Program-made: the position numbers and the translations under genes
Part shown: piece after piece, positions 2,469-17,108 of the stretch
Numbering within the stretch: position 1 is the stretch's first letter
Layout: each line of letters opens with the position of its first letter
The notes under the pieces: generated by a model
Database searches by the model: none
Told to the model about the DNA's origin: nothing
Seen by the model: only the letters and a program-made list of their open reading frames with translations
Virus record (IMG/VR): IMGVR_UViG_3300031227_000385
Location: 1 to 25,207 of that record
DNA: 25,207 nt
Direction: 5' to 3' (one strand)
Source of the DNA: a virus

Positions 2469-3797
2469 ATGAGTTATTTTAAGAGTATAATACAAGATGT
2501 AAAAGCGGATGATAATAATAGTTCAACAGACAATATATTATTTGGTGAAACTTGGAGTGGTACATCTACATCAACATTAGGTGTTGTAGGATTACAATTT
2601 AGTTTGAAAACAGACCAAAATATGACGGTATGTGTAGAACAATCCCCCGATGGTACAAATTGGGATTTAACAGATGAATATGATTATATATCATCCAAAG
2701 GTGGTGATGGTTGGACTACTCAAGCCATTAATAGTTATATGAGAGTTCTTGTAACTAATGTAGGTTTTACAGGCACAACATATTTTAGAGCACAAACGGC
2801 TTTGTGTCCTATCGCAGAACCATTACCTCGTTCATTAAGTGATGATGGTAGGCTGAAAAGCGAGTGTCATATATCTGACCAGAATGATAGACACGTTAGG
2901 ATTAGTAGACAAAGTGAATTACTCACAACCCCTGTTTATAGGATGGTTGGTACTTCATTCAATACATATTATGATACTAATTTCTGGCTTACTGGTGGAA
3001 CAAATGGTGGTACTGTTTCGTTTGATGGTGATGCTCAATTATCATCATCAATTGCCTCAGGTGGAACGGCAACACTAAATAGTGTTAGAAAAGCAAGATT
3101 TGTAACTGGTTCAGCCAACTTATATAGAGGTGCATTAAGATTGACAACATTACCAACATCTGGTTGCACCAGAAGAACAGGCGCTTATAATGATGATAAT
3201 GGATTTTATTTACAGTTAAGTGGTGAAACATTGGGAATAGGCTCAAGAAAAGGTGGCGTAGATACGGTTGTAAGTTCAGGAAGTTTTAATGGTGATTTTG
3301 GTTCAACGGTTGATTTAAGTGAAACGGTTGGAACTAATGCTTTTGGTTTAAAAATAGAATATGGTATTCAATCAGTAGATTATTATGTAGGTGATACATT
3401 ATTACATAAAATACCATTAGTAGATGATAGTTTTGTAGAAACATTAACATTACCTTTAAGAACAGAGGTTATAAATCAAGGTTCAACAGCGAATAATGGT
3501 ATTATTATATTTGCTAAATCATTATTTAGAATAGGTGAATTAAAAACAAATCCAACTTGGAAATACTTTGAAGGTAATCAAGCAGAAGTATGTAAATATA
3601 GTTCTGGAACAATTCATTCATTAATAATTCAAGACAGTAGTGGTAACGCTGCAATATATGATGGTATAGATGATACTGGTACGTTAATAGCTGATGTTGA
3701 TTTGGCTACTGGTACATTGGTATTTGATTTATCATTTAATAATGGGTTATATATTGAAACAACGAATGGAGCAAATGTTACAGTAACTTATGAATAA
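2469..3797 (+). CDS. Putative virion adhesin or tail-fibre-associated protein
   Basis: This 442-residue protein has no family I can name with certainty. It is rich in Gly, Ser, Thr and Asn with alternating hydrophobic residues, as in beta-sandwich virion proteins. Residues 1-110 look like one compact beta domain: a GETWSGTSTSTLG stretch, then a VEQSPDGTNWD segment typical of phage tail proteins. A linker follows, then a larger beta domain from about residue 150. The start ATG follows an A-rich leader (aaagataaaaaa) with no Shine-Dalgarno sequence, 11 bases after the upstream adhesin. No membrane or signal segment is seen. Its position between adhesin and phospholipase genes suggests a host-contact role. 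Confidence 0.6.
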   Translation: MSYFKSIIQDVKADDNNSSTDNILFGETWSGTSTSTLGVVGLQFSLKTDQNMTVCVEQSPDGTNWDLTDEYDYISSKGGDGWTTQAINSYMRVLVTNVGFTGTTYFRAQTALCPIAEPLPRSLSDDGRLKSECHISDQNDRHVRISRQSELLTTPVYRMVGTSFNTYYDTNFWLTGGTNGGTVSFDGDAQLSSSIASGGTATLNSVRKARFVTGSANLYRGALRLTTLPTSGCTRRTGAYNDDNGFYLQLSGETLGIGSRKGGVDTVVSSGSFNGDFGSTVDLSETVGTNAFGLKIEYGIQSVDYYVGDTLLHKIPLVDDSFVETLTLPLRTEVINQGSTANNGIIIFAKSLFRIGELKTNPTWKYFEGNQAEVCKYSSGTIHSLIIQDSSGNAAIYDGIDDTGTLIADVDLATGTLVFDLSFNNGLYIETTNGANVTVTYE

Positions 3798-3829
3798 TAT
3801 AAAAACAATAAATATTTAACAATAAAAGA

Positions 3830-4735
3830 ATGGAAAAAAAAGAAATTAAAAGAGCTCTTGTTATTAGTGGTGGCGGAGCTAAAGGTGCTTGGGGAGGCGG
3901 ACTATTACAGTGTTTAATCGAAGAGAAAGATTATGATTGGGATATGTATTTCGGAACCAGCACGGGTTCTTTGCTTATTACATTGACCGCGTTGCAAGAA
4001 ATGGAAAAATTGAAGAGCGCGTATACATCAGTTAGCAATAAAAATATTTTTTCTGTAAATCCCTTTACAAAAAAAGGGAAGATTAATTGGCTTAATGCAA
4101 TATGGAGAACTGTTAGAAAAAAGAATTCCCTTGGGGAGGCTAATGGCTTATATAAGCAAATTCAGAGGATGTTTACCGAAAAGGAGTACAACATGCTTAT
4201 TAATATGAAAAGACCTCTTTATCCGTGTGCGACAGATTATTATTCTCAATCTGCAAAATATGTGTGTAATCTTAATGTTGATTATGAAACATATTGCAAA
4301 TTTACATTAGCGTCGGCAAGCGTTCCAGTTGCATTTGATTATGTTGAAGTAGGAGATTATTTATTACTTGATGGTGGTGTAACTCAGCATATACCAATTC
4401 AAAAAGCAATCGATGAGGGTGCAGATGAAATAGATGTTATTGTATTTAGGCCAGAAAAAATTGAATATGATGGATGGCAACCAAACGGTTGGTTTGACGC
4501 ATTACTCAGAACAACAACAATTCAAGAAACTCAAGTGTCGTTAAATGATGTTACAATAGCCATGCTACGTGCTAATAATAAAGATGTTAAAGTTAGAATT
4601 CGTTATACCCCTTATGTTTTGACTCATAATTCTCTTGTATTTGATAAAGAGCAAATGTTAAAATGGTGGAAAGAGGGTTATGATTATGGCAAATTAGATG
4701 ACAAATCCACTAAAATCACTATTAAGAAAAAGTAG
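3830..4735 (+). CDS. Patatin-like phospholipase
   Basis: This 301-residue protein carries all landmark motifs of patatin-like acyl hydrolases. Residues 13-19 (SGGGAKG) form the oxyanion-hole glycine loop, 42-46 (GTSTG) the G-x-S-x-G nucleophile elbow with Ser44, and 181-183 (DGG) holds the Asp181 partner of the Ser-Asp dyad. The ASASVP segment at about 161-166 is also typical. The family cleaves acyl chains from membrane lipids. The motifs are intact, so the enzyme is probably active. There is no signal peptide, so the protein would act in the cytoplasm or be carried in the virion. It lies between adhesin genes and the terminase, 32 bases after the former. A role in lysis, in host membrane change or as a virion effector is possible, but the sequence does not decide. 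Patatins are uncommon in phages. Confidence 0.9.
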   Translation: MEKKEIKRALVISGGGAKGAWGGGLLQCLIEEKDYDWDMYFGTSTGSLLITLTALQEMEKLKSAYTSVSNKNIFSVNPFTKKGKINWLNAIWRTVRKKNSLGEANGLYKQIQRMFTEKEYNMLINMKRPLYPCATDYYSQSAKYVCNLNVDYETYCKFTLASASVPVAFDYVEVGDYLLLDGGVTQHIPIQKAIDEGADEIDVIVFRPEKIEYDGWQPNGWFDALLRTTTIQETQVSLNDVTIAMLRANNKDVKVRIRYTPYVLTHNSLVFDKEQMLKWWKEGYDYGKLDDKSTKITIKKK

Positions 4736-4737
4736 AC

Positions 4738-4745
4738 TATTTATA
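4738..4745 (+). promoter_or_regulatory. Putative late promoter element TATTTATA upstream of terminase
   Basis: TATTTATA is followed by an A-rich tract and lies directly after the patatin stop, 75 bases before the terminase ATG. It is one of five exact copies in intergenic gaps of this window. The 84-base gap contains no gene. The assignment as a phage late promoter is inferred from recurrence and from the downstream genes. Confidence 0.45.
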
Positions 4746-4819
4746 AAATAATAATATAAATGTAGTATATAGTTCTGATTATATTAGAATTAACTATGAA
4801 TATATATTGAAACTTAGTT

Positions 4820-6781
4820 ATGGGTTTTTCAGATAAGGAAAAGGAATATATTAAATGTGCTTCGGACCCTCTTTATTTTTTAAATAATTATGGGTATGTG
4901 TTCGACGCTAGAAAGCAGAGAGTTGAACGGATGACATGTTTTAAATATCAGGAGGAGTGTATAGAAAAATTTCACGAATTTCAGAATAATATTGTTCTTA
5001 AGTCGAGACAAACAGGACTTTCAGTTATTTCGGCTGGATATTGTGCATGGAGGTTGATATTTAGAACTGACCAAAAGATTTTAATTATTGCGAATGATGG
5101 TGATGGAGCTGAGAGGTTCCTGGGAATCATTAAGCAATTTGTAATTAGAGCTCCGTCGTGGATGTTACCAGATGGTGGAACTGCAGATGACCCAACCAGA
5201 ACAAACAATCAGAAAAAAATTGAATTATATAATGATTCTTGGGCTAAAGCTAGAGCAAGTAGTGAAAATGCTGGTCGTGGAGAATCACTTACATTATTAG
5301 TGCTTGATGAAGCTGCTTTTATTGAGCATATCACAAAGATTTGGATGGGTGCTGGTATGGCACTTTCAGCTACACAGGGTAAGTGTATATGGTTGTCAAC
5401 TCCAAATGGAACGGGAGGTTTATATCATAAAGCTTGGATTGATGCTGAGGATAAGAGAAATGATTTTGTCCCAACAACTGTTCATTGGACACAAAATCCA
5501 AATTCTGCCATAGGTTTAGAGAAACGAAGAGATATGAACGGTGAATCTGTTTTTTGGAGCCCATGGTATGAAAAAGAATGTAAAAGATTGAATTATGACC
5601 CTGTTTTAATTGCTCAGGAACTTGACCTTTCTTTTGAAGGTTCAAAGAGATTGGCAATTGAGACTGACCTTATTTCTAAGTATGAAAAAAGGCTTCTTAC
5701 TGATGAATATAAGAAAATCGTATCGGAGAAAAGATACTATGATTATAGACAACCAGTTGGTAATAGGTTTGTGACATATGAAACATCTTTTCATGTGTTT
5801 AAACCCCCTCAGACTGGGCACAGATATGTTATTGGTGGTGATGTCGCGAGAAGTGATGGGACTGACTACTCTACATTACATGTTGTTGATATAGATACAC
5901 TGGAAGTTGTTGCAGAGTATAGAGATAAAATTTCTCCCGATTTATTTGCAGAGGTGATTTACGCTGTCGGTAAAGATTTTAATTATGCATATCTTGCAAT
6001 AGAGGCGAATAGTTTTGGCTTAGCAACTACTCTTGACCTTAATAGAAAAATGGGTTATGAGAGAATGCATTTCTGTAAAACGATTAAGGAGTTACACGTA
6101 AGAACTGAGGATTATAAAGTTAATACTGATGAGACAATTCCAGGATTCCAGACAACTAAGAAAACGAAACCTCTTTTAGTTAACACGCTTCGTGTATATA
6201 TGAGAGAGGGTGAACTTAAGATATATTCACAAAGAGTTTTATCCGAACTCAGAAGTTTCATTCAAAAAGGGGATAAATCTGAGGCTGAAAATGGTTATAA
6301 TGATGACCTTGTAATAGCACTTGGAATAGCTCTGTATATTAGAGATACAGACTTTCAGAATGCTACTCAAACTCAGGAGATGTATAGAAGCATGCTTGAT
6401 GCTATTTCTTATAGCTCTGGCGATATGGAAGGTAAATCATATACTGCCAATGAGAAAGTAGAAAATAATCAGGTTGCAGACGGAGGCGGCTTGTATTTCG
6501 GAAATTATATTGAAGAAGAGGGAGAAATTTTGGACGAGGAGGGGAATGATGTAAGTTGGTTACTTACTCCGATAAACCCAGTTAAAACTCATTATTTTGA
6601 TGACCCTGAGGCGAGTCCTCGTGATGAACTTTTAACACTCGCAAAAAGACAAGGATATGTTCCTAAAACATGTTTATTGGGTGGTGAAACCGTTATGGGG
6701 TTAGTAAATAAAGGCGAAGACCCATGTTTAGGTTGTCAATGTGATAGAATAAAATGTAAAGGAAGATTGATAAACGCTTGA
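4820..6781 (+). CDS. terL: Terminase large subunit (T4 gp17-like)
   Basis: This 653-residue DNA-packaging motor has an N-terminal ATPase and a C-terminal RNase H-fold nuclease. The Walker A-like motif is SRQTGLS (62-68), equivalent to the SRQ-type motif of T4 gp17. Walker B is VLDEAAF (161-167), with a coupling motif STPNGTGG at 193-200. The nuclease acidic residues are Asp341 (GGDVA), Glu395 (IEANSFG) and Asp495/Asp496 (NDDLVIAL). An in-frame TGA at 4808 fixes ATG 4820 as the start. The last 35 residues are unusual, with Cys618 followed by a tight cluster Cys636, Cys639, Cys641 and Cys646 that could bind a metal. Terminase and portal are adjacent, as is usual for tailed phages. No small subunit was recognised nearby. 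Confidence 0.95.
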   Translation: MGFSDKEKEYIKCASDPLYFLNNYGYVFDARKQRVERMTCFKYQEECIEKFHEFQNNIVLKSRQTGLSVISAGYCAWRLIFRTDQKILIIANDGDGAERFLGIIKQFVIRAPSWMLPDGGTADDPTRTNNQKKIELYNDSWAKARASSENAGRGESLTLLVLDEAAFIEHITKIWMGAGMALSATQGKCIWLSTPNGTGGLYHKAWIDAEDKRNDFVPTTVHWTQNPNSAIGLEKRRDMNGESVFWSPWYEKECKRLNYDPVLIAQELDLSFEGSKRLAIETDLISKYEKRLLTDEYKKIVSEKRYYDYRQPVGNRFVTYETSFHVFKPPQTGHRYVIGGDVARSDGTDYSTLHVVDIDTLEVVAEYRDKISPDLFAEVIYAVGKDFNYAYLAIEANSFGLATTLDLNRKMGYERMHFCKTIKELHVRTEDYKVNTDETIPGFQTTKKTKPLLVNTLRVYMREGELKIYSQRVLSELRSFIQKGDKSEAENGYNDDLVIALGIALYIRDTDFQNATQTQEMYRSMLDAISYSSGDMEGKSYTANEKVENNQVADGGGLYFGNYIEEEGEILDEEGNDVSWLLTPINPVKTHYFDDPEASPRDELLTLAKRQGYVPKTCLLGGETVMGLVNKGEDPCLGCQCDRIKCKGRLINA

Positions 6782-6807
6782 TAATTTTTCTAAAATTACT
6801 ATATTTA
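6778..6807 (+). promoter_or_regulatory. Putative Bacteroidota-type promoter for the portal gene
   Basis: TTG at 6778-6780 is separated by 19 bases from TATATTTA at 6800-6807. This fits the Bacteroidota -33/-7 pattern (TTG, then TAnnTTTG) with one mismatch at the last base. The portal ATG lies 14 bases downstream, giving a very short leader. Confidence 0.4.
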
Positions 6808-6821
6808 ATAAAAATACAATA

Positions 6822-9032
6822 ATGGCTGATAAAGTACAGAAGAAACAAAAAGATAATGGTAGTATATTCCAGGGAGTTCTGGATGCTGTTAGTGGTAGTC
6901 GTCGAAAAAAGTTTGATGATAACGAGAATCAAAACTCGTCCCCTTATCAAACTATGCCGCCACAATCTAAGGGTGGAAGCGTAGAAGATAAGCAACAGGG
7001 GTTTTTAGATTGGCAGGTTCATAAGATTTCTCATGATTTATATACTAGAACAGTATACTTTGATACAGATAGAATTTCCGCTTATCAAGATTTTAGAGCA
7101 ATGGATGGAACTCCAGAAATTGCAGCTGCACTTAATATCATGAGAGACGAATGTCTTACAAGAGGTGAGTCTGGCGATATATTGGGAATATACTCAGAAA
7201 ATCAAAGAGTAAAAGAAGTTTTAGATGATTTATTTAGAAACGTTCTTAACGTTGAATTTAATCTTAGATTGTGGATTAGAGACTTATTGAAGTACGGCGA
7301 TTATTTTGTACTTTTAAACATTGATAAAGAGTTAGGTATATATGATTTTCTTACTCTTCCAATGGAAGAAATTCACAGAGAAGAGGGTTATGATGGTAGA
7401 CTTGACAGTGTAAGATTTAGATGGGAAACAACTGGAGATTATTTTGAAGAATGGCAGGTAGCACATTTCAGACTACTTGAAGACTCTAGAAAATTACCTT
7501 ACGGTAGAAGTATACTTGACTCTTCCAGAAAACTTTGGAAACAGCTGCAGTTGGCTGAGGATGCAATGTTGGTATATCGTATTGTAAGAGCCCCAGAAAG
7601 ACGAATTTTCTTTGTTGAAGTTGGAAATCTTCCTGACCAGGACGTTAAAGGTTACATGCAGAAGATGCAGAATCAAATTAGGAAACAACCGATGGTTGAT
7701 ATGAGAAATCCTGCTGGTAACACAACTATGAAATATGACCCAGCCAATGTGACGGAGGATTATTGGGTACCAATTAGAGGAGATAAACATTCAAGAATAG
7801 AAACTTTACCAGGAGCAACAAACCTGGGAGAGATTCAAGATATAGAATATTTGCAGAATAAATTATTTGCAGCATTACAGGTTCCAAAAACTTATTTGAA
7901 TTATACAGAATCAATGGCTGGTGGAAGTATGTTATCACAAGCAGATATTCGTTTTGCAAGAACAATCGTGTCAATTCAAGAGGCAATTTTATTAGAACTT
8001 AGGAGAATTGCTAATGTTCACCTGTATTTCTTAGGATTTACAGATGATATGGACAACTTTAAACTTACACTGACAAATCCATCTACCCAACAAGAATTGT
8101 TGAAATTGGAAACAATGAAAGCAAGACTTGAAGTATTTAAAGAAATGTTTAGTTCAGAGGCAACGTCTCCAACATCTTATACTTGGGCGATGGAGCAAAT
8201 CCTAGGATTTTCAAAATCTGATATTAAATTAATATTGAAGCAGAAGAAAGTTGAGAAGAAACTATTTGCTGAGATTGACGCTGCTGTCGAAACTTATAAG
8301 AAAATCGGTTTATTTGATGAACTTGACGCAATATATGAAGACCCTGCGGCTGCAGCTGCGGCTATGGCTGCTCAAGGCGGCGAAGATGAAGGTGCAGATG
8401 AAGGCGGCGGTGGCGGCTTTGGCGGTTCCAGTGCATTAGGCGGTGGCGGCATGGGTGGCGACCCTGGAGCTGAAATGGGTGATGAAATGGGTGCAGAATT
8501 AGGTGCAGAGCCAGGCGCCGAATTAGGCGCAGAGCCAGTAGTTGGAGATGAAGAAGAAGAACTGCCTCCTGAATTATCAGAAGATGCTAAGAAGAAGATT
8601 AAACTTATGAAAGAAGTGTGGGATGCGTCAGATAATCGTTCTAATAAACTATTAGAGGCATTATTAGGAGAAGATGATTACGCTAAAAAACTAAAGGATA
8701 AACGAAAAGATAACGCTCTTTCTAAGAGTAATAAGAAACTTGCAAACACTACAAAAAAATTAATGCGTACTATCGATGAAAAACTAGAAAATAGAAAAAA
8801 TACAATAGACATTAATCCTATTGTAAAAGAACCTGCTGATATTCTTACAGAGGAAGATAACGCGTTAATTAAAAATAATGTCGCCAATAATCTTAAAACA
8901 ACCGATATTTTTGCTAAGTTAGATGAAATAACCTCTAATGATGATTTGGTCATTGGGGAGGATATTTCAACACCTAAAGATGATATAGTTGCCGAGGGAG
9001 ATGACTCAAACCCTGCTGAGAATGGAAAATAA
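6822..9032 (+). CDS. Portal protein (T4 gp20-like) with long acidic C-terminal extension
   Basis: This protein of 736 residues forms the dodecameric portal at one capsid vertex, through which DNA is packaged. The core, about residues 60-470, follows the T4 gp20 pattern: an AxxIMRDEC-type segment, YGDYFVLL, the hallmark RAPERRIFFVEVGNLP stretch, then EDYWVP and the LQVPKTYLNY and GGSMLSQADIRFAR segments. After residue 510 comes a low-complexity Ala/Gly/Asp/Glu region with GAELGAEP repeats, then a charged Lys-rich helical tail of about 150 residues. The tail is absent from the classical family. It could be a scaffold-like or assembly domain, but this is inference. The gene follows terminase by 40 bases and overlaps the next gene by 11 bases. 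Confidence 0.93.
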   Translation: MADKVQKKQKDNGSIFQGVLDAVSGSRRKKFDDNENQNSSPYQTMPPQSKGGSVEDKQQGFLDWQVHKISHDLYTRTVYFDTDRISAYQDFRAMDGTPEIAAALNIMRDECLTRGESGDILGIYSENQRVKEVLDDLFRNVLNVEFNLRLWIRDLLKYGDYFVLLNIDKELGIYDFLTLPMEEIHREEGYDGRLDSVRFRWETTGDYFEEWQVAHFRLLEDSRKLPYGRSILDSSRKLWKQLQLAEDAMLVYRIVRAPERRIFFVEVGNLPDQDVKGYMQKMQNQIRKQPMVDMRNPAGNTTMKYDPANVTEDYWVPIRGDKHSRIETLPGATNLGEIQDIEYLQNKLFAALQVPKTYLNYTESMAGGSMLSQADIRFARTIVSIQEAILLELRRIANVHLYFLGFTDDMDNFKLTLTNPSTQQELLKLETMKARLEVFKEMFSSEATSPTSYTWAMEQILGFSKSDIKLILKQKKVEKKLFAEIDAAVETYKKIGLFDELDAIYEDPAAAAAAMAAQGGEDEGADEGGGGGFGGSSALGGGGMGGDPGAEMGDEMGAELGAEPGAELGAEPVVGDEEEELPPELSEDAKKKIKLMKEVWDASDNRSNKLLEALLGEDDYAKKLKDKRKDNALSKSNKKLANTTKKLMRTIDEKLENRKNTIDINPIVKEPADILTEEDNALIKNNVANNLKTTDIFAKLDEITSNDDLVIGEDISTPKDDIVAEGDDSNPAENGK
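8490..8537 (+). repeat. Two 24-bp tandem repeats coding GAELGAEP
   Basis: Bases 8490-8513 and 8514-8537 encode the same octapeptide with three synonymous differences. They sit in a locally GC-rich patch (about 8341-8560) that codes for the Ala/Gly/acidic region of the portal protein, in contrast to the AT-rich surroundings. Confidence 0.85.
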
Positions 9033-9344: not shown

Positions 9345-10913
9345 ATGGGTGATAAATTAAACATTGAAAATTTAGATTTACGTACTGAGCAGGAAAAATC
9401 GTTAAATGAGAAAAAAACAGAATCCAGAACAGTTGATGTGGATACTAGCATTAAATCTTATTCTAACGATGATAATTCATATAGACCACTTGCTCACTTG
9501 CACCTGCATACATTTCACTCTATATTAGATGGTTGTGGGAGCATAGATAACTATGTTAAATTAGCTAAAGAATATAATCACCCCGCTATGGCCATAACTG
9601 ACCACGGTACACTTTCAGGTCTTTTCGAGTTTCAAAAAAAATTAAAAAGAGGTGGTATTAAACCTATTCTTGGAATCGAAGCCTATGTGAATGATAATAT
9701 GGGTGAGATGGAAGAGAAAAAATATGAAGGCGGTAATGCTCATCAGATTCTTCTTATTATGAATAAGACAGGATTTGTAAACGCGAATCAACTTGTATAT
9801 CGTTCTTTTACCGAGGGTTTCTACAGAAGAGGTAGAATGAGAACTGATTGGATTGTTGATAAGAGCGAGGGATTATTTGGAACCACTGCTTGTATAGGCA
9901 ATATGGTTGCTAAGTTGTTTTTTCAAAAGAGCCCACAAGAAGCTGAAAAATATTTTGTGCGACTGCGAGACGCTTTTGGAGAAAATTTTGCAGCTGAAAT
10001 TCATTTAAATGAACTTAAAGACCAATATTACTTTAATGCATTTTTAATCGAAATGGCTAATAAACACGGCGTTCCTATTGTTATTGGAACTGATGTACAT
10101 TACGCTTACCCAGAAGATGTAGCACTTCAAGATACTCTGATTGCAGTAAATCAGAAAAAAGATTTATCAAATTCGTTCAAACTAGATGCTAGACATTTAT
10201 ATTATCAAAGCAGTAAAGATTTACACATGTTTAATACAAGGTTTGGATATAATTATCCCGCTGAGTTTATTGACAGTTGTATGGATAATAGTTTATGGGT
10301 TGCAAACAAGTGTAATTTTGAAATGGAAACAGGGGTAGACAAATATCCTAAATTTGAACCCCCTAAAGACGTTTTGGACTATTTTAAGACAGATAACGTT
10401 AGGGATATTATGACAAAACTTGCTTTTGGGAAATTAAAACAAAAGTTTAAAAAATATAAAGAAACGAAAGTTGTTGAGCTTGACAAGGAAAAAGAAATGG
10501 AATACGCAAGGAGATTGCAGTATGAAATTGACGTAATTGACGACAAGGGCATGTTAGATTATTTCTTGGTGAATTGGGAAATAATTCGTGATTATCGAAG
10601 TAAGGGATATGAAATAGGTCCTGCTAGAGGTTGTTTTGTTCCAGGAAGTAGAGTTAAAATGATTGATGGGATGTACGCCCCCATAGATACAATTGAAGTG
10701 TGTGATATAGTTATAGATGCTTTTGGAGATGCAAGAAAAGTTATAGATGTTTTGGAGTATGATATTGAGGAGGATATTCTTGAACTCGAATTTGATGACG
10801 GGAGAATTATCGAGTGTACTTTTGACCATGAAATTTTGACGGAGAATCGTGGGTGGATACAAGCAAAGGATTTGACGTATGATGATGAAATAGTTGACAT
10901 AACTAAAATATAA
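9345..10913 (+). CDS. dnaE: DNA polymerase III alpha, N-terminal half fused to split-intein N-fragment
   Basis: Residues 1-429 are the N-terminal part of a DnaE replicative polymerase, and residues 430-522 are an intein N-fragment. After a 45-residue leader, the PHP domain starts with the H-x-H motif (HLHLHTFHS, 51-57) and continues with TDHG (85-88), GIEAYV and GTDVHYAY. The polymerase part stops inside the conserved YEIGPARG motif, just before the palm Asp residues. The intein begins at Cys430 (CFVPGSRVKM, block A) and carries a block B TFDHE at about 492 before a TAA stop. The half cannot polymerise alone because the catalytic Asp residues lie in the second gene. Trans-splicing with the product of 12007-14331 would restore the enzyme. 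A Bacteroidota-type promoter lies upstream. Confidence 0.95.
   Translation: MGDKLNIENLDLRTEQEKSLNEKKTESRTVDVDTSIKSYSNDDNSYRPLAHLHLHTFHSILDGCGSIDNYVKLAKEYNHPAMAITDHGTLSGLFEFQKKLKRGGIKPILGIEAYVNDNMGEMEEKKYEGGNAHQILLIMNKTGFVNANQLVYRSFTEGFYRRGRMRTDWIVDKSEGLFGTTACIGNMVAKLFFQKSPQEAEKYFVRLRDAFGENFAAEIHLNELKDQYYFNAFLIEMANKHGVPIVIGTDVHYAYPEDVALQDTLIAVNQKKDLSNSFKLDARHLYYQSSKDLHMFNTRFGYNYPAEFIDSCMDNSLWVANKCNFEMETGVDKYPKFEPPKDVLDYFKTDNVRDIMTKLAFGKLKQKFKKYKETKVVELDKEKEMEYARRLQYEIDVIDDKGMLDYFLVNWEIIRDYRSKGYEIGPARGCFVPGSRVKMIDGMYAPIDTIEVCDIVIDAFGDARKVIDVLEYDIEEDILELEFDDGRIIECTFDHEILTENRGWIQAKDLTYDDEIVDITKI
10632..10910 (+). other. Split intein N-fragment (IntN, 93 residues)
   Basis: This region encodes the catalytic Cys1, a block A of type CFxPGSRV, and block B with the T-x-x-H motif (TFDH). 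It ends at a natural stop where contiguous inteins would continue into an endonuclease or linker. The size is like the N-fragments of the phage gp41, NrdJ and IMPDH split inteins. Confidence 0.93.
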
Positions 10914-10926
10914 ATTATGAATACGG

Positions 10927-10954
10927 AAAATAAAACCTCTTGCGGGTCTATTTT
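10927..10954 (+). terminator. Possible weak terminator hairpin after the IntN gene
   Basis: AAAATA (10927-10932) pairs with TATTTT (10949-10954). Inside it, ACCT (10935-10938) pairs with GGGT (10944-10947) around a five-base loop. The structure follows the IntN stop by 13 bases and has an A-rich left and U-rich right flank. It is imperfect, so attenuation rather than full termination is as likely. Confidence 0.3.
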
Positions 10955-10965
10955 ATAAAATTTGC

Positions 10966-10991
10966 AGCTATTTATATAAAATAAGATAGCT
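10966..10991 (+). promoter_or_regulatory. Hairpin containing a TATTTATA late-type promoter, before the endonuclease start
   Basis: AGCTAT (10966-10971) plus TTAT (10972-10975) pairs with ATAA (10981-10984) plus ATAGCT (10986-10991), with G10985 bulged and a five-base loop. The stem ends on the base before ATG 10992, so it would hide the ribosome landing zone in read-through RNA. TATTTATA (10969-10976) lies in the left arm. RNA started from it would begin past most of that arm and could not fold the stem. This is the logic known for T4 I-TevI; here it is inferred. Confidence 0.5.
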
Positions 10992-12026
10992 ATGAAAAAG
11001 TTAACAAAAAAACAATTACAAGAATTGAGTACAGCAATATTAAATAAAGGTTTTTTAAACTGGGAAGAGGTTCATATGTTTAGAGAAAAATTTAATTACT
11101 CGTATGAAACATTTAAACGAGAATTGATGAATAATAAAATACCATTTAAAAGTGGTAATGCAGCAAATGTATTGTTAAGTTTTGGAGTTAAAATAAAAGA
11201 AAAAAAGATTAGATTTGGTGATTTTTATTCTTTGGGTAACTGGAAATTAGAAGTGTTTAAAAACTCTAAAATCAGAGTGATATTTGAGTGTCAAGAATGT
11301 GGAAAAGAATCTGATGCCAGATTAGCAAAGGTGATTAATAGAGAATTTTTTCCTAATGAGCCAATATGCTCTACTTGTATTAATAAGTTAGTTCGCAATA
11401 CTGATGAATGTAAAAAAAGAAATAGTAAAGCCCAATTTATTGCTCAAAATAGGCCAGAGGTTAAGAAAAAAAATAAAGAGAGTCAACTAAAAAGGTTTGA
11501 GAATCCCGAGGTAAGAAAAAAACATAGTGAAGCTGGAAAAAAGAATTGGCAAAATGCAGATTATAGAAGAAAAATGAAAGAGATTGCCAAGAAAAAATGG
11601 GATGACCCAGAATATGCAAAAAGAGTAATTCAAAATTCTAAAAATGGCGGCCTCAAGGGGATTTATAAAAATATTTATTATGATAGTGGGTATGAACTTG
11701 CGTGGTTAATGCTTATGGAGTTGAGAGAGGGTCTTGATGGTATACATAGAGCTAATATATATATAAGTTATATAAATTATAAAGAAAAATTTTCTCATTA
11801 TTATCCTGATTTTATTTTGAATGAAAAATACTTGATTGAGGTTAAAGGGTATGGTCCATGGGCTAATAGAGAAAATATTAGTAAAAAAAATAAGGCAGCT
11901 AAATTGTGGTGTCAGATGAATAACATGAGATATAGACTTGTTGAATTTAAAGATATTGGTAATCATTGGTATAGAAAAGCTAGAGAGAAACATAAAGAGT
12001 TAGATAATGACACGATTAAAAAATAA
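10992..12026 (+). CDS. Free-standing homing endonuclease, Vsr-related/PD-(D/E)xK type
   Basis: This 344-residue protein lies between the two dnaE halves. Residues 1-95 look helical and DNA-binding. C100-x2-C103 with C126-x2-C129 suggests a zinc ribbon. Residues 141-215 hold repeated basic helical units of the NUMOD3 type (for example NPEVRKKHSEAGKKNW), a DNA-binding module of homing endonucleases. The C-terminal nuclease runs from about 227, with Glu235 (SGYELAW), Asp273 (HYYPDFIL) and Glu283-x-Lys285 (IEVKGY). Together these form a PD-(D/E)xK-like core related to Vsr and the EDxHD homing nucleases of fractured phage genes. It probably cuts intein-less dnaE alleles to spread this locus; the target site is inferred. 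Its last 20 bases overlap the next gene. Its start is preceded by a hairpin with a late-type promoter. Confidence 0.85.
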   Translation: MKKLTKKQLQELSTAILNKGFLNWEEVHMFREKFNYSYETFKRELMNNKIPFKSGNAANVLLSFGVKIKEKKIRFGDFYSLGNWKLEVFKNSKIRVIFECQECGKESDARLAKVINREFFPNEPICSTCINKLVRNTDECKKRNSKAQFIAQNRPEVKKKNKESQLKRFENPEVRKKHSEAGKKNWQNADYRRKMKEIAKKKWDDPEYAKRVIQNSKNGGLKGIYKNIYYDSGYELAWLMLMELREGLDGIHRANIYISYINYKEKFSHYYPDFILNEKYLIEVKGYGPWANRENISKKNKAAKLWCQMNNMRYRLVEFKDIGNHWYRKAREKHKELDNDTIKK

Positions 12027-12114
12027 GAGGATAAAAAAATATAAAGGAAAAGTTCATGACCTTACTGTTGAAGAAACTCATTCTTACAACATAGAGGGAA
12101 TTGGTGTTCATAAC
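12007..12114 (+). other. Split intein C-fragment (IntC, 36 residues)
   Basis: It has a basic start (MTRLKNKRIKK), block F (VHDLTVEETHSYN) and block G ending GIGVHN. The penultimate His and terminal Asn needed for Asn cyclisation are present. The +1 extein residue is Ser37, a valid nucleophile. With IntN the whole intein is 129 residues. Confidence 0.93.
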
Positions 12115-14331
12115 TCCGCGGCTGGCTCGTTGTTGTCATGGTGTCTTGATATTACAAAGATTGACCCTATTAGATTTGGATTATATTTTGAAAGGTTTTT
12201 GAATCCTACTAGAAATTCTCCCCCAGATATTGATATCGATTTCATGTCGAATACAGACCATATAACTAATGAGTTTTTACAAAAGAAATATGGCAAAGAA
12301 AGAGTTTTGTCAGTTTCAACATTTAGCACATTTAATGAAAAAAATTGTATAAAGGATGTAACTAGAGCGTTTGGACAGGACACAAGTTTTGATTCAGATA
12401 TACATGCTGTTACTCAGGAAATGCCAGATTTTAATAAGGTTGATTATGGTTTAAAATGGTGGATAGAAAATCATCCAAAAGAAAAGGATTGTAGCGCCAG
12501 AGTTAAAGGGTGGATTGTAGACACAGGCAATAGTAAGATAATTGAGCAAGCCCTGAAACTGCAGGGGCAAATTAGAGGTATTGGTCAACACGCAGCGGGT
12601 ATTGTTGTGACACCTAGTTTGTCGTGGGAACATGTTCCTGTAAATATAATAGCTTCCAATAAGAATATTGTTACAGCATTTCAAGAGGCTGATAAGTCTG
12701 GGAAAGATTTGTCTGAGCTTGGAATATTAAAATTAGACAGATTAAAACTTGATACATTAAATGTTGTAGAAGAAGCTATTGACCTTATAAAAGAAACCAA
12801 AAATGTTGATGTGAGAGATAAAGTTTATTACATTGACCTTAATGATGAAAATTTATATCGAGAGCTTCGATTAGGGCTTAATAAGGGTATATTTCAGTTT
12901 GAGTCTGGTGGTATGAACGCGTTAATTAAAGGTATGCAGGTGCAGAATTTTGAAGAGATGGTGGCTGCAAATGCTTTGTATAGACCAGGTCCTATGGGAA
13001 TTAGGGCGCACGAAGAATATATAGAAAATAAATTTGCTAAAAACGATATTAAATATATAGACGAGAGCTTAAGACCTATTCTTGAATCTACTAAAGGTGT
13101 AATGATTTTCCAGGAACAGGTTATGTTTATTGCGAGTCAGATTGGAGGGATGTCTCTTGGAGATGGAGATATGCTTAGGCGAGCAATGGATAAGGCTAGT
13201 AAGTTGATTGATAAGGAAAATAAGGGGGAATTGTCCGATGAGGAGAGAAGGGGAGATAAGTTCCAGTTTTTCTTAAAATATTGGAATCAGTTCTTGAGTG
13301 GTGCTAAAGAGCGTGGACTTTCAGTAGAGGCGTTGGATAAGATAAAAAATTGGATGATAAAATACTTGGGATATTCATTTAATAAATCTCACTGTGTAAG
13401 TTATTCATATATTGGCGCACAAACATTGTTTTTAAAGCATTATTATCCTACAGAATTTTATACGGCACTTTTGAATCATCCTAAGTCTAACAGTAAGAAA
13501 GACGAGGAAAAAAGATGGTTAGCCTCAGCTATAGCGGCGGCAATGTCAAAAAACATTACAATTAAACCTCCATCTAGAAAATCAGGTCTCAAATGGACGA
13601 TGACAGGTGAACACGAAATATCTATGGGATTTTCGGGAATTAATGGACTTGGAAACATCGCATATGAAGAGCTTATAACGATTTTAAAAGCTACACAGGT
13701 TGATTTTGAAAGTACTACAATAGCTCAATTTTTTGACCTACCATTTTCAAAATTCAATAAGACCGCATTTAAGGCTTGTCTTAAGGCGGGTGTTTTTGAT
13801 GATTGGTCTAATTCTAGAGAGCATATGATGTCTTTATGGGAGAGGCGTAAAAAAAAGAAAAAAGGTGGCGCTGGACAATTGGCAATATTTGATATGAACT
13901 CTCCAGAGTTAAGCGCAGCTTTGATTAGCAGTGTTAAGTTTGCTGCAACTACCGAGGGGGAAAAGAGAGCAGAGTTTGTAGATGTTTGCAATTTTGACCT
14001 TGTTAAAATCAAGGAAATGGTTAAAATTAAAGACCAGATTCAAGAGAGAGCAGGGAGAGAAATTGAAAGTATAATGAACTTTGATGAAGATGGTTATTAC
14101 TTTTTTGTTGTTGATTCTTTTTTTGAGAAATTAACACAGAAGGGTAAAAAATATATTGAAATAAAAATGGGGGATGGAATATCCCATAGAACTATGAGAG
14201 CATTTTCACCATTCTGCAACAAGATAGAATCTAAACTTGAAAGGGGCGGCATATATGTATCTCAGTTTATGAAAAACCAAAAAGGGTTTGTTAACTTTGC
14301 CAGAAAGGCACAATTCGGGAGGATAAAATAA
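12007..14331 (+). CDS. dnaE: Split-intein C-fragment fused to DNA polymerase III alpha, C-terminal half
   Basis: Residues 1-36 are the intein C-fragment; residues 37-774 are the catalytic part of DnaE. The extein starts SAAGSLLSWCL, continuing the GPARG motif of the first half. Catalytic Asp residues are Asp74 and Asp76 (PPDIDIDF) and Asp244 (LKLDRL), equal to E. coli D401, D403 and D555. Other family motifs are LYRPGPMG, FQEQVM, GDMLRRAMDK and FNKSHCVSYSYI. A QLAIF sequence (624-628) after a Lys-rich stretch fits the internal beta-clamp-binding motif. The C-terminal 120 residues look like an OB fold. A TAG at 12001 fixes ATG 12007 as the start, inside the end of the endonuclease gene. The spliced enzyme would be about 1167 residues, normal for DnaE. 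The stop overlaps the next ATG (TAATG). Confidence 0.95.
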   Translation: MTRLKNKRIKKYKGKVHDLTVEETHSYNIEGIGVHNSAAGSLLSWCLDITKIDPIRFGLYFERFLNPTRNSPPDIDIDFMSNTDHITNEFLQKKYGKERVLSVSTFSTFNEKNCIKDVTRAFGQDTSFDSDIHAVTQEMPDFNKVDYGLKWWIENHPKEKDCSARVKGWIVDTGNSKIIEQALKLQGQIRGIGQHAAGIVVTPSLSWEHVPVNIIASNKNIVTAFQEADKSGKDLSELGILKLDRLKLDTLNVVEEAIDLIKETKNVDVRDKVYYIDLNDENLYRELRLGLNKGIFQFESGGMNALIKGMQVQNFEEMVAANALYRPGPMGIRAHEEYIENKFAKNDIKYIDESLRPILESTKGVMIFQEQVMFIASQIGGMSLGDGDMLRRAMDKASKLIDKENKGELSDEERRGDKFQFFLKYWNQFLSGAKERGLSVEALDKIKNWMIKYLGYSFNKSHCVSYSYIGAQTLFLKHYYPTEFYTALLNHPKSNSKKDEEKRWLASAIAAAMSKNITIKPPSRKSGLKWTMTGEHEISMGFSGINGLGNIAYEELITILKATQVDFESTTIAQFFDLPFSKFNKTAFKACLKAGVFDDWSNSREHMMSLWERRKKKKKGGAGQLAIFDMNSPELSAALISSVKFAATTEGEKRAEFVDVCNFDLVKIKEMVKIKDQIQERAGREIESIMNFDEDGYYFFVVDSFFEKLTQKGKKYIEIKMGDGISHRTMRAFSPFCNKIESKLERGGIYVSQFMKNQKGFVNFARKAQFGRIK

Positions 14332-16697: not shown

Positions 16698-17108
16698 ATG
16701 GCAAAAAAAAGGATAAAAAGACCCAGAACGCTACTCGAGAAAAAGAAGTATGTCAAAAGACAAGCGAGCAGGATGTCAAAAAAAATGACATGGCCTGAGG
16801 CCGAGTTTGTCAAACTTATGGAAGAATTAAATATAACATGTGAATCACAAAAGATAATTCGACTTAAGATTTATGATTTCTTTTTGCCAGATTACAATAT
16901 AATCATTGAAGTTGATGGAGATTATTTCCACGGCAACCCCGAACTGTTTGAGGAAATGAATAAGATGCAGAAAAGAAATATAAAGAATGATAAATATAAA
17001 GATATGTTAGCAAGAGGTCTAGGATATCAATTGGAGAGGGTTTGGGAAAATGATTTGAAAAATAATTATGAACAAGTAAAAGAACGCTTTAAAAGACTTT
17101 GTAGATGA
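16698..17108 (+). CDS. Small Vsr/DUF559-like endonuclease
   Basis: This 136-residue protein has a nuclease core of the Vsr/DUF559 type. Features are Glu36 in TWPEAEF, then DFFLPDYNIIIEVDGDYFH (60-78) with Asp65, Glu71 and Asp73, and a C-terminal GYQLERVWENDL (109-120). These match the T-x-x-E, P-D-x, E-x-D and L-R-x-W-E pattern of the fold. The first 25 residues are a very basic tail. It could be a repair enzyme, a packaging-related nicking enzyme, or a free-standing homing endonuclease between late genes. It is unlike the larger intein-linked endonuclease and lacks zinc or NUMOD parts. It overlaps the next gene by four bases (ATGA). Confidence 0.75.
   Translation: MAKKRIKRPRTLLEKKKYVKRQASRMSKKMTWPEAEFVKLMEELNITCESQKIIRLKIYDFFLPDYNIIIEVDGDYFHGNPELFEEMNKMQKRNIKNDKYKDMLARGLGYQLERVWENDLKNNYEQVKERFKRLCR

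What the first reader, a model, noticed from the sequence alone, without database searches (positions are those of the whole stretch)
10632..12117. Fractured replicative polymerase: split intein with a homing endonuclease gene between the halves
The dnaE gene is cut within the conserved GPARG/SAAGS motif. The first ORF ends in IntN (Cys1, TFDH), the second starts with IntC (GIGVHN, then Ser+1). A complete endonuclease gene stands between them with its own start and stop. All residues needed for trans-splicing are present. Fractured genes with split inteins and Vsr-related endonucleases are known from phage metagenomic loci, so the arrangement class is known. This full context (PHP-containing DnaE, NUMOD3-like repeats plus zinc ribbon in the endonuclease, and control elements) looks worth description.
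Basis: partly seen in the sequence, partly recalled or inferred. Interest (0 to 1): 0.9.

Follow-up and report, generated by a model that had tools for sequence, protein, structure and literature searches.

The report
Phage polymerase split by a mobile intein
In this uncultured phage the DNA polymerase gene is cut in two, each half carries one half of a self-splicing protein element expected to stitch the enzyme back together, and the gene of a DNA-cutting enzyme that probably spreads the insertion sits between the halves; the arrangement is of a known kind, but related phages show many stages of its gain and decay.

Summary
Observation confirmed. ORF1 (9345-10913) ends in a 93-residue N-intein (Cys1 codon 10632). 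ORF2 (12007-14331) starts with a 36-residue C-intein (Asn36/Ser+1, codon 12115). An intact 344-aa endonuclease gene (10992-12026) lies between. Removing the intein gives a 1167-aa PHP-type DnaE that matches uninterrupted alleles in sister phages.

Best explanation: a 'fractured gene', i.e. a trans-splicing split intein plus a homing endonuclease that moves the cassette into empty dnaE alleles. Support: all splicing residues; N-intein -17 / C-intein +8 charge; at least 12 distinct phage lineages with the same IntN/endonuclease/IntC order at this site; seven relatives with the empty site; inteins about 76-82% identical where exteins are about 40%; endonuclease remnants with the intein halves kept.

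Splicing and homing are inferred, not shown. Class known; new member. Side findings may be more novel than the window itself: a relative whose endonuclease overlaps an open intein linker in another frame (L034), and a DnaE split at three sites (L024).

The parts
9345..10631 (+). N-extein of DnaE (429 aa): PHP domain and start of the Pol III alpha core, ending ...GPARG
   Evidence: Pfam PHP 1.4e-37, DNA_pol3_alpha 1.9e-10; matches uninterrupted DnaE of L011, 60.6% identity over the whole extein
10632..10913 (+). N-intein (93 aa + TAA): Cys1, block B TFDH, net charge -17
   Evidence: best solved relative NrdJ-1 intein, E 2e-6
10914..10991 (+). Intergenic leader of the endonuclease gene; two weak hairpins, not better than shuffles
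   Evidence: fold z -0.21
10992..12026 (+). Free-standing endonuclease gene, 344 aa, intact
   Evidence: homologues at the same dnaE site in further loci
10992..11192 (+). Endonuclease N-terminal helical domain, homeodomain-like arrangement (residues 1-67)
   Evidence: VIA-align Z about 5 to homeodomains, weak
11289..11378 (+). Endonuclease zinc ribbon: C100, C103, C126, C129
   Evidence: three Cys invariant, the fourth nearly so, in 14 homologues
11403..11603 (+). Endonuclease NUMOD3-like helical repeats (residues 138-204; SxAQxIAQNRPE)
   Evidence: Q148, I150, N153, E156 invariant; helices in the model
11649..12023 (+). Endonuclease catalytic domain, PD-(D/E)XK: E235, P272-D273, E283-x-K285
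   Evidence: TnsA Z 8.0 over 125 residues; T7 endonuclease I weak by profile, E 0.018
12007..12114 (+). C-intein (36 aa): block F VHDLTVEETHSYNI, block G GVHN; first 18 aa net +8; start codon inside the endonuclease gene
12115..14331 (+). C-extein of DnaE (738 aa), Ser+1, polymerase core with PPDIDIDF
   Evidence: Pfam DNA_pol3_alpha 1.3e-46, finger 4.8e-45

Best explanation
This is a fractured dnaE. ORF1 and ORF2 are made as separate proteins; the acidic N-intein and basic C-intein associate and splice in trans by the class 1 route (Cys1 attack, transfer to Ser+1, Asn36 cyclisation), giving an uninterrupted 1167-aa phage DnaE. The protein between them is a site-specific PD-(D/E)XK homing endonuclease. 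It would cut dnaE alleles that lack the insertion at the conserved GPxRG/S site during co-infection, and repair on the filled allele would copy the whole IntN-ENase-IntC cassette. The intein keeps the insertion harmless; the nuclease spreads it. When empty targets run out, the nuclease gene decays while the intein halves, now needed for polymerase, are kept. Shown: anatomy, intact reading frames, conserved residues, recurrence, empty and decayed alleles. Inferred: splicing, cleavage specificity, homing.
For: Intact frames with splicing residues. Same site and order in at least 12 distinct lineages with varied IntN stop codons, TAA/TAG/TGA. Of 27 loci found with the endonuclease profile, 19 (16 of them new) lie at this dnaE site, as a site-specific homing enzyme should. 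Empty site in the closest DnaE relatives L011, L059-L063, L066. Intein distances to L024/L017 of 0.26-0.29 against extein distances of 1.08-1.49; IntN identity 76-82%, N-extein about 40%. Endonuclease remnants in L024 and L028, and an apparent 11-codon scar in L017/L020, with IntN and IntC intact. Purifying selection on the intein (dN/dS about 0.06-0.10) and on an ENase pair (0.08). Charge split -17/+8, weaker or absent in contiguous same-site inteins.
Against: No biochemical evidence of splicing or cleavage. The extein tree does not formally reject a window/L024/L017 clade, i.e. vertical descent of their inteins (AU p = 0.067). dS values are near saturation, so dN/dS is rough. The endonuclease fold match is modest (Z 8.0, Foldseek E > 0.1). 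The collection of loci was gathered with junction and endonuclease queries, so frequencies are biased towards filled alleles.
Confidence: 0.86

Rival explanations
1. Gene-in-pieces without splicing: the two halves fold into a non-covalent polymerase, as in the Aeh1 NrdA split by mobE, and the intein remnants are tails.
For: A ribonucleotide reductase split in this way is known and works as two peptides (described in PMC10448857).
Against: All intein residues and charge complementarity are kept across a dozen lineages, and the halves persist after the endonuclease is lost. The cut lies inside the conserved GPxRG/SAAGS motif, and contiguous inteins occupy the same codon.
Confidence: 0.05
2. The endonuclease is a hitch-hiker or serves another role (general nuclease, recombination, phage exclusion) and does not home the intein.
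For: No cleavage data; TnsA and endonuclease I relatives are not homing enzymes.
Against: This nuclease family is tied to one dnaE site (19 of 27 loci), has a modular zinc-ribbon/NUMOD-like DNA-binding part, and decays independently of the intein.
Confidence: 0.1
3. The IntN stop is read through or recoded, giving one long contiguous intein with the endonuclease inside.
For: IntN and ENase happen to share a frame here; in L044 they are fused.
Against: At this point members use TAA, TAG or TGA, and the window uses all three stops normally; IntC begins in a different frame from the ENase.
Confidence: 0.02
4. Assembly chimera or pseudogene.
For: Single metagenomic contig; the near-identical contig L010 ends before the insertion.
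Against: All frames are intact, and the same architecture occurs in many unrelated contigs from different metagenomes.
Confidence: 0.01

Closest known systems
Fractured genes (Dassa et al. 2009, NAR 37:2560, doi 10.1093/nar/gkp095; not held here, described from own knowledge, cited in PMC10448857 and PMC12350094)
   Same: Conserved phage DNA-metabolism gene broken by a split intein with a free-standing endonuclease gene between the halves
   Different: Here dnaE at GPxRG/S; the nuclease is PD-(D/E)XK (TnsA/endonuclease I-like) instead of the Vsr/EDxHD type reported for about half of those loci; I could not check whether dnaE was among their gene types
NrdJ-1 / gp41-type phage split inteins
   Same: N-intein most similar among solved chains to NrdJ-1 (8ubs, E 2e-6); split point after block B
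   Different: Different host gene and insertion site; splicing untested
Cyanobacterial split DnaE intein (Ssp/Npu)
   Same: Split intein in a DnaE
   Different: Halves lie in separate genes in different parts of the genome (PMC7765530), without an endonuclease between them; IntN similarity only marginal
Contiguous same-site DnaE inteins of Bacillus phage G gp329 and Lactococcus phages 949/P1048
   Same: Same insertion codon, Cys1 ... HN/S
   Different: One polypeptide; in 949 the insert is long enough for a nuclease domain, in phage G it is shorter
I-Bth0305I (EDxHD homing endonuclease)
   Same: Related core fold in a modular phage enzyme; Z 5.7 over 80 residues
   Different: TnsA is closer (Z 8.0); the window enzyme has the classic ExK lysine; no Vsr profile hit

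Membership tests
Fractured gene | Conserved gene broken in two by a split intein at a conserved motif | tested here: met
   uninterrupted alleles L011, L059-L063, L066
Fractured gene | Free-standing endonuclease gene with own start and stop between the halves | tested here: met
Fractured gene | Trans-splicing of the halves | not testable with these tools
   residues intact only
Fractured gene | Vsr/EDxHD-type endonuclease (reported in about half of the original loci, own knowledge) | tested here: inconclusive
   no Vsr/DUF559 profile hit for 10992-12026; conserved E/PD/ExK triad; TnsA Z 8.0 vs I-Bth0305I Z 5.7
Class 1 split intein | Cys1, block B TxxH, C-terminal His-Asn, +1 nucleophile (Ser) | tested here: met
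   CFVPG..., TFDH, GVHN/S
Class 1 split intein | Oppositely charged halves typical of natural split inteins | tested here: met
   -17 vs +8 in the first 18 residues; contiguous homologues -8/0 and +2/-7
PD-(D/E)XK nuclease | Conserved E...PD...(D/E)xK residues | tested here: met
   E235, P272, D273, E283, K285 at least 90% conserved in the homologues
PD-(D/E)XK nuclease | Matching fold | tested here: inconclusive
   TnsA Z 8.0, 125 residues, 3.5 A; Foldseek E 0.3
Homing endonuclease | Empty target alleles exist in relatives | tested here: met
   seven empty-site relatives
Homing endonuclease | Cassette transferred horizontally | tested here: inconclusive
   intein distance 4-5 times smaller than extein distance, but AU p = 0.067
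Homing endonuclease | Specific cleavage of the empty site | not testable with these tools
   needs protein

The most novel reading that the evidence does not exclude
The GPxRG/S site of phage dnaE hosts one continuous evolutionary series: empty; contiguous intein; contiguous intein whose linker stays open while the endonuclease is read in an overlapping frame (L034); IntN fused to a nuclease (L044); fully fractured with a free endonuclease (window); nuclease remnant (L024, L028); short scar (L017); and bare split intein (L022). This would make the site a documented route between contiguous and split inteins, with several split inteins able to stack in one polymerase (L024, L066).
Probability: 0.35. 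Interest if true: 0.75.

Novelty: new member of a known kind. Interest (0 to 1): 0.52.

Why it matters
It gives a large, comparable set of natural split inteins at one codon of a replicative polymerase, with empty, filled and decayed alleles. That makes the origin of split inteins and the homing of fractured genes directly testable, and it supplies new candidates for trans-splicing tools.

Tried and rejected
Single-protein scans with ORF2 and the endonuclease found almost nothing in IMG/VR; only the junction pattern and the endonuclease alignment opened the family. Rfam: no hit, so no intron RNA is recognised. Leader hairpins and Bacteroidota-type promoter boxes: at chance level. Co-conversion tracts around the junction versus L011: codon differences are high throughout, no signal. 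The small 16698 ORF gave DUF559/Vsr in Pfam, but a PDB sequence search gave nothing usable. Literature: Dassa 2009 is not in the library; no held paper was found describing dnaE split inteins of phages. Foldseek against BFVD: best hits carry names such as endonuclease I, NUMOD3 and TnsA, with low TM-scores. A sequence identity between the window endonuclease and the site-2 endonuclease of L066 was sought and not found.

Full report
Observation. The window is an IMG/VR virus record with T4-like portal and terminase genes; the terminase is closest, at 32% identity, to Flavobacterium phage immuto, so a Bacteroidota host is possible but unproven. ORF1 (9345-10913) carries a PHP domain and the start of the Pol III alpha core, then runs from ...GPARG into CFVPG...TFDH...DITKI-stop. 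ORF2 (12007-14331) begins with 36 residues ending GVHN and continues SAAGSLLSW... Between them a 344-aa ORF (10992-12026) is complete. The Cys1 codon is 10632 and the Ser+1 codon 12115; the joined exteins give 1167 aa.

Empty alleles. The related contig L011 has the same gene order, terminase, portal, dnaE. Its dnaE reads straight through GPARGSAAGS (junction at L011:9101), 60.6% identical to the joined window product. L059-L063 and L066 are also empty at this codon. L010 is a nearly identical phage, but its contig ends before the insertion.

The family. A DNA pattern for GPxRG-C[FL]xPG hit 16 IMG/VR stretches. Most encode DnaE with an N-intein at this codon, and in most of these the N-intein ORF stops after 89-95 residues. 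An alignment of four endonucleases then found 27 loci, of which 19 (16 new) are at this same dnaE site and eight match only the repeat region. Complete IntN-stop/ENase/IntC order is seen in at least 12 distinct lineages: window, L016, L019, L027, L031, L032, L035, L037, L038, L039, L041, L045. Split without endonuclease: L017/L018/L020 (121-nt spacer) and L022 (20-nt spacer). Remnants: about 71 codons in L024 (75% identical to the C-terminus of the window enzyme) and 61 codons in L028. In L017/L020 the bases before IntC still read RKAKQEHKENN, an apparent scar of the window-type RKAREKHKELDND tail. Contiguous forms: L015 (mini-intein), L013 and Bacillus phage G, Lactococcus phages 949/P1048. 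PHROG families 13169 and 21652 match ORF1 and ORF2 along stretches that include the intein parts, so split forms are probably already catalogued there, without that label.

Is the intein working? Cys1, TxxH, the block F Asp, His-Asn and Ser+1 are present. N-intein net charge -17 and C-intein start +8 suit electrostatic association; two contiguous same-site inteins show -8/0 and +2/-7. dN/dS between the window, L024 and L017 inteins is 0.06-0.10, though dS is high. The best solved relative of IntN is the NrdJ-1 intein. Splicing is inferred, not shown.

Mobility. Window intein identity to L017 and L024 is 76-82% (IntN) and 78-81% (IntC), while the N-extein is 40-42% identical. Tree distances are 0.26-0.29 for the intein and 1.08-1.49 for the extein; for L016 the two are about equal (0.95, 1.03). 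This points to lateral spread. A formal test whether the extein data reject {window, L024, L017} as a clade gave p = 0.067, so it is suggestive only.

The endonuclease. Fourteen homologues share C100/C103/C126/C129 (zinc ribbon), an AQxIAQNRPE repeat motif and E235, P272-D273, E283xK285. AlphaFold gives mean pLDDT 84.8 but pTM 0.43, which fits separate domains. The catalytic part resembles TnsA best (Z 8.0), then others including I-Bth0305I (Z 5.7); profile hits to T7 endonuclease I are weak. So it is a PD-(D/E)XK enzyme, not clearly Vsr-like. In L044 similar N-terminal modules carry an HNH domain and are fused to IntN.

Three fracture sites. In the sister phage L066 this site is empty, but dnaE is split at NPTRN/C... 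and GYSFNK/C..., each with an endonuclease gene carrying an EVxGDYxH motif. Both are similar to the small free-standing ORF 16698-17108 of the window (2e-13 and 2e-9), which itself matches DUF559/Vsr. L024 is split at all three sites.

Verdict. The arrangement matches the published fractured-gene class (own knowledge; the paper is cited), so this is a new member. What is added here is the comparative series and the different nuclease family. I could not verify whether phage dnaE at this codon was among the published loci.

Noticed in passing
L034:2446-8688 and 3869-4813: One 2081-aa ORF runs through IntN, linker and IntC without a stop, while the same PD-(D/E)XK endonuclease is encoded in an overlapping frame of the linker; 0 of 20,000 synonymous-codon permutations leave the linker frame open (mean 15 stops).
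   Followed up: partly
L024:3318-7662: DnaE broken at three sites by three split inteins, i.e. four polypeptides.
   Followed up: partly
L066:4729-11138: Sister phage with site 1 empty but dnaE split at two other sites, each with a free endonuclease gene with an EVxGDYxH motif between intein halves.
   Followed up: partly
L017 vs L020: Nearly identical dnaE genes (98-100%) where only L017 has a second N-intein at GYSFNR/C; a possible strain-level presence/absence pair.
   Followed up: no
L011:208-2970 and 3021-7469: Contiguous inteins in the terminase (one, at the Walker A region) and the portal protein (two) that the window phage lacks.
   Followed up: no
L044:2777-4693: N-intein fused in frame to zinc-ribbon/NUMOD-like modules and an HNH nuclease, with the C-intein in a separate overlapping ORF.
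   Followed up: partly
window 16698-17108: Small free-standing DUF559/Vsr-like endonuclease, homologous to the site-3 endonuclease of L066.
   Followed up: partly
window 3830-4735: Patatin-like phospholipase gene (Pfam 1e-24) next to the terminase of a phage.
   Followed up: no
L004:2940-6912 (Bacillus phage G gp329-331): Contiguous same-site intein in DnaE, and the polymerase is broken again downstream by gene 330, annotated as a homing endonuclease.
   Followed up: no
L006:3891-8253 (Alicyclobacillus phage MMB025): DnaE without an intein at this site but split near its 3' part by an endonuclease gene, perhaps an intron.
   Followed up: no
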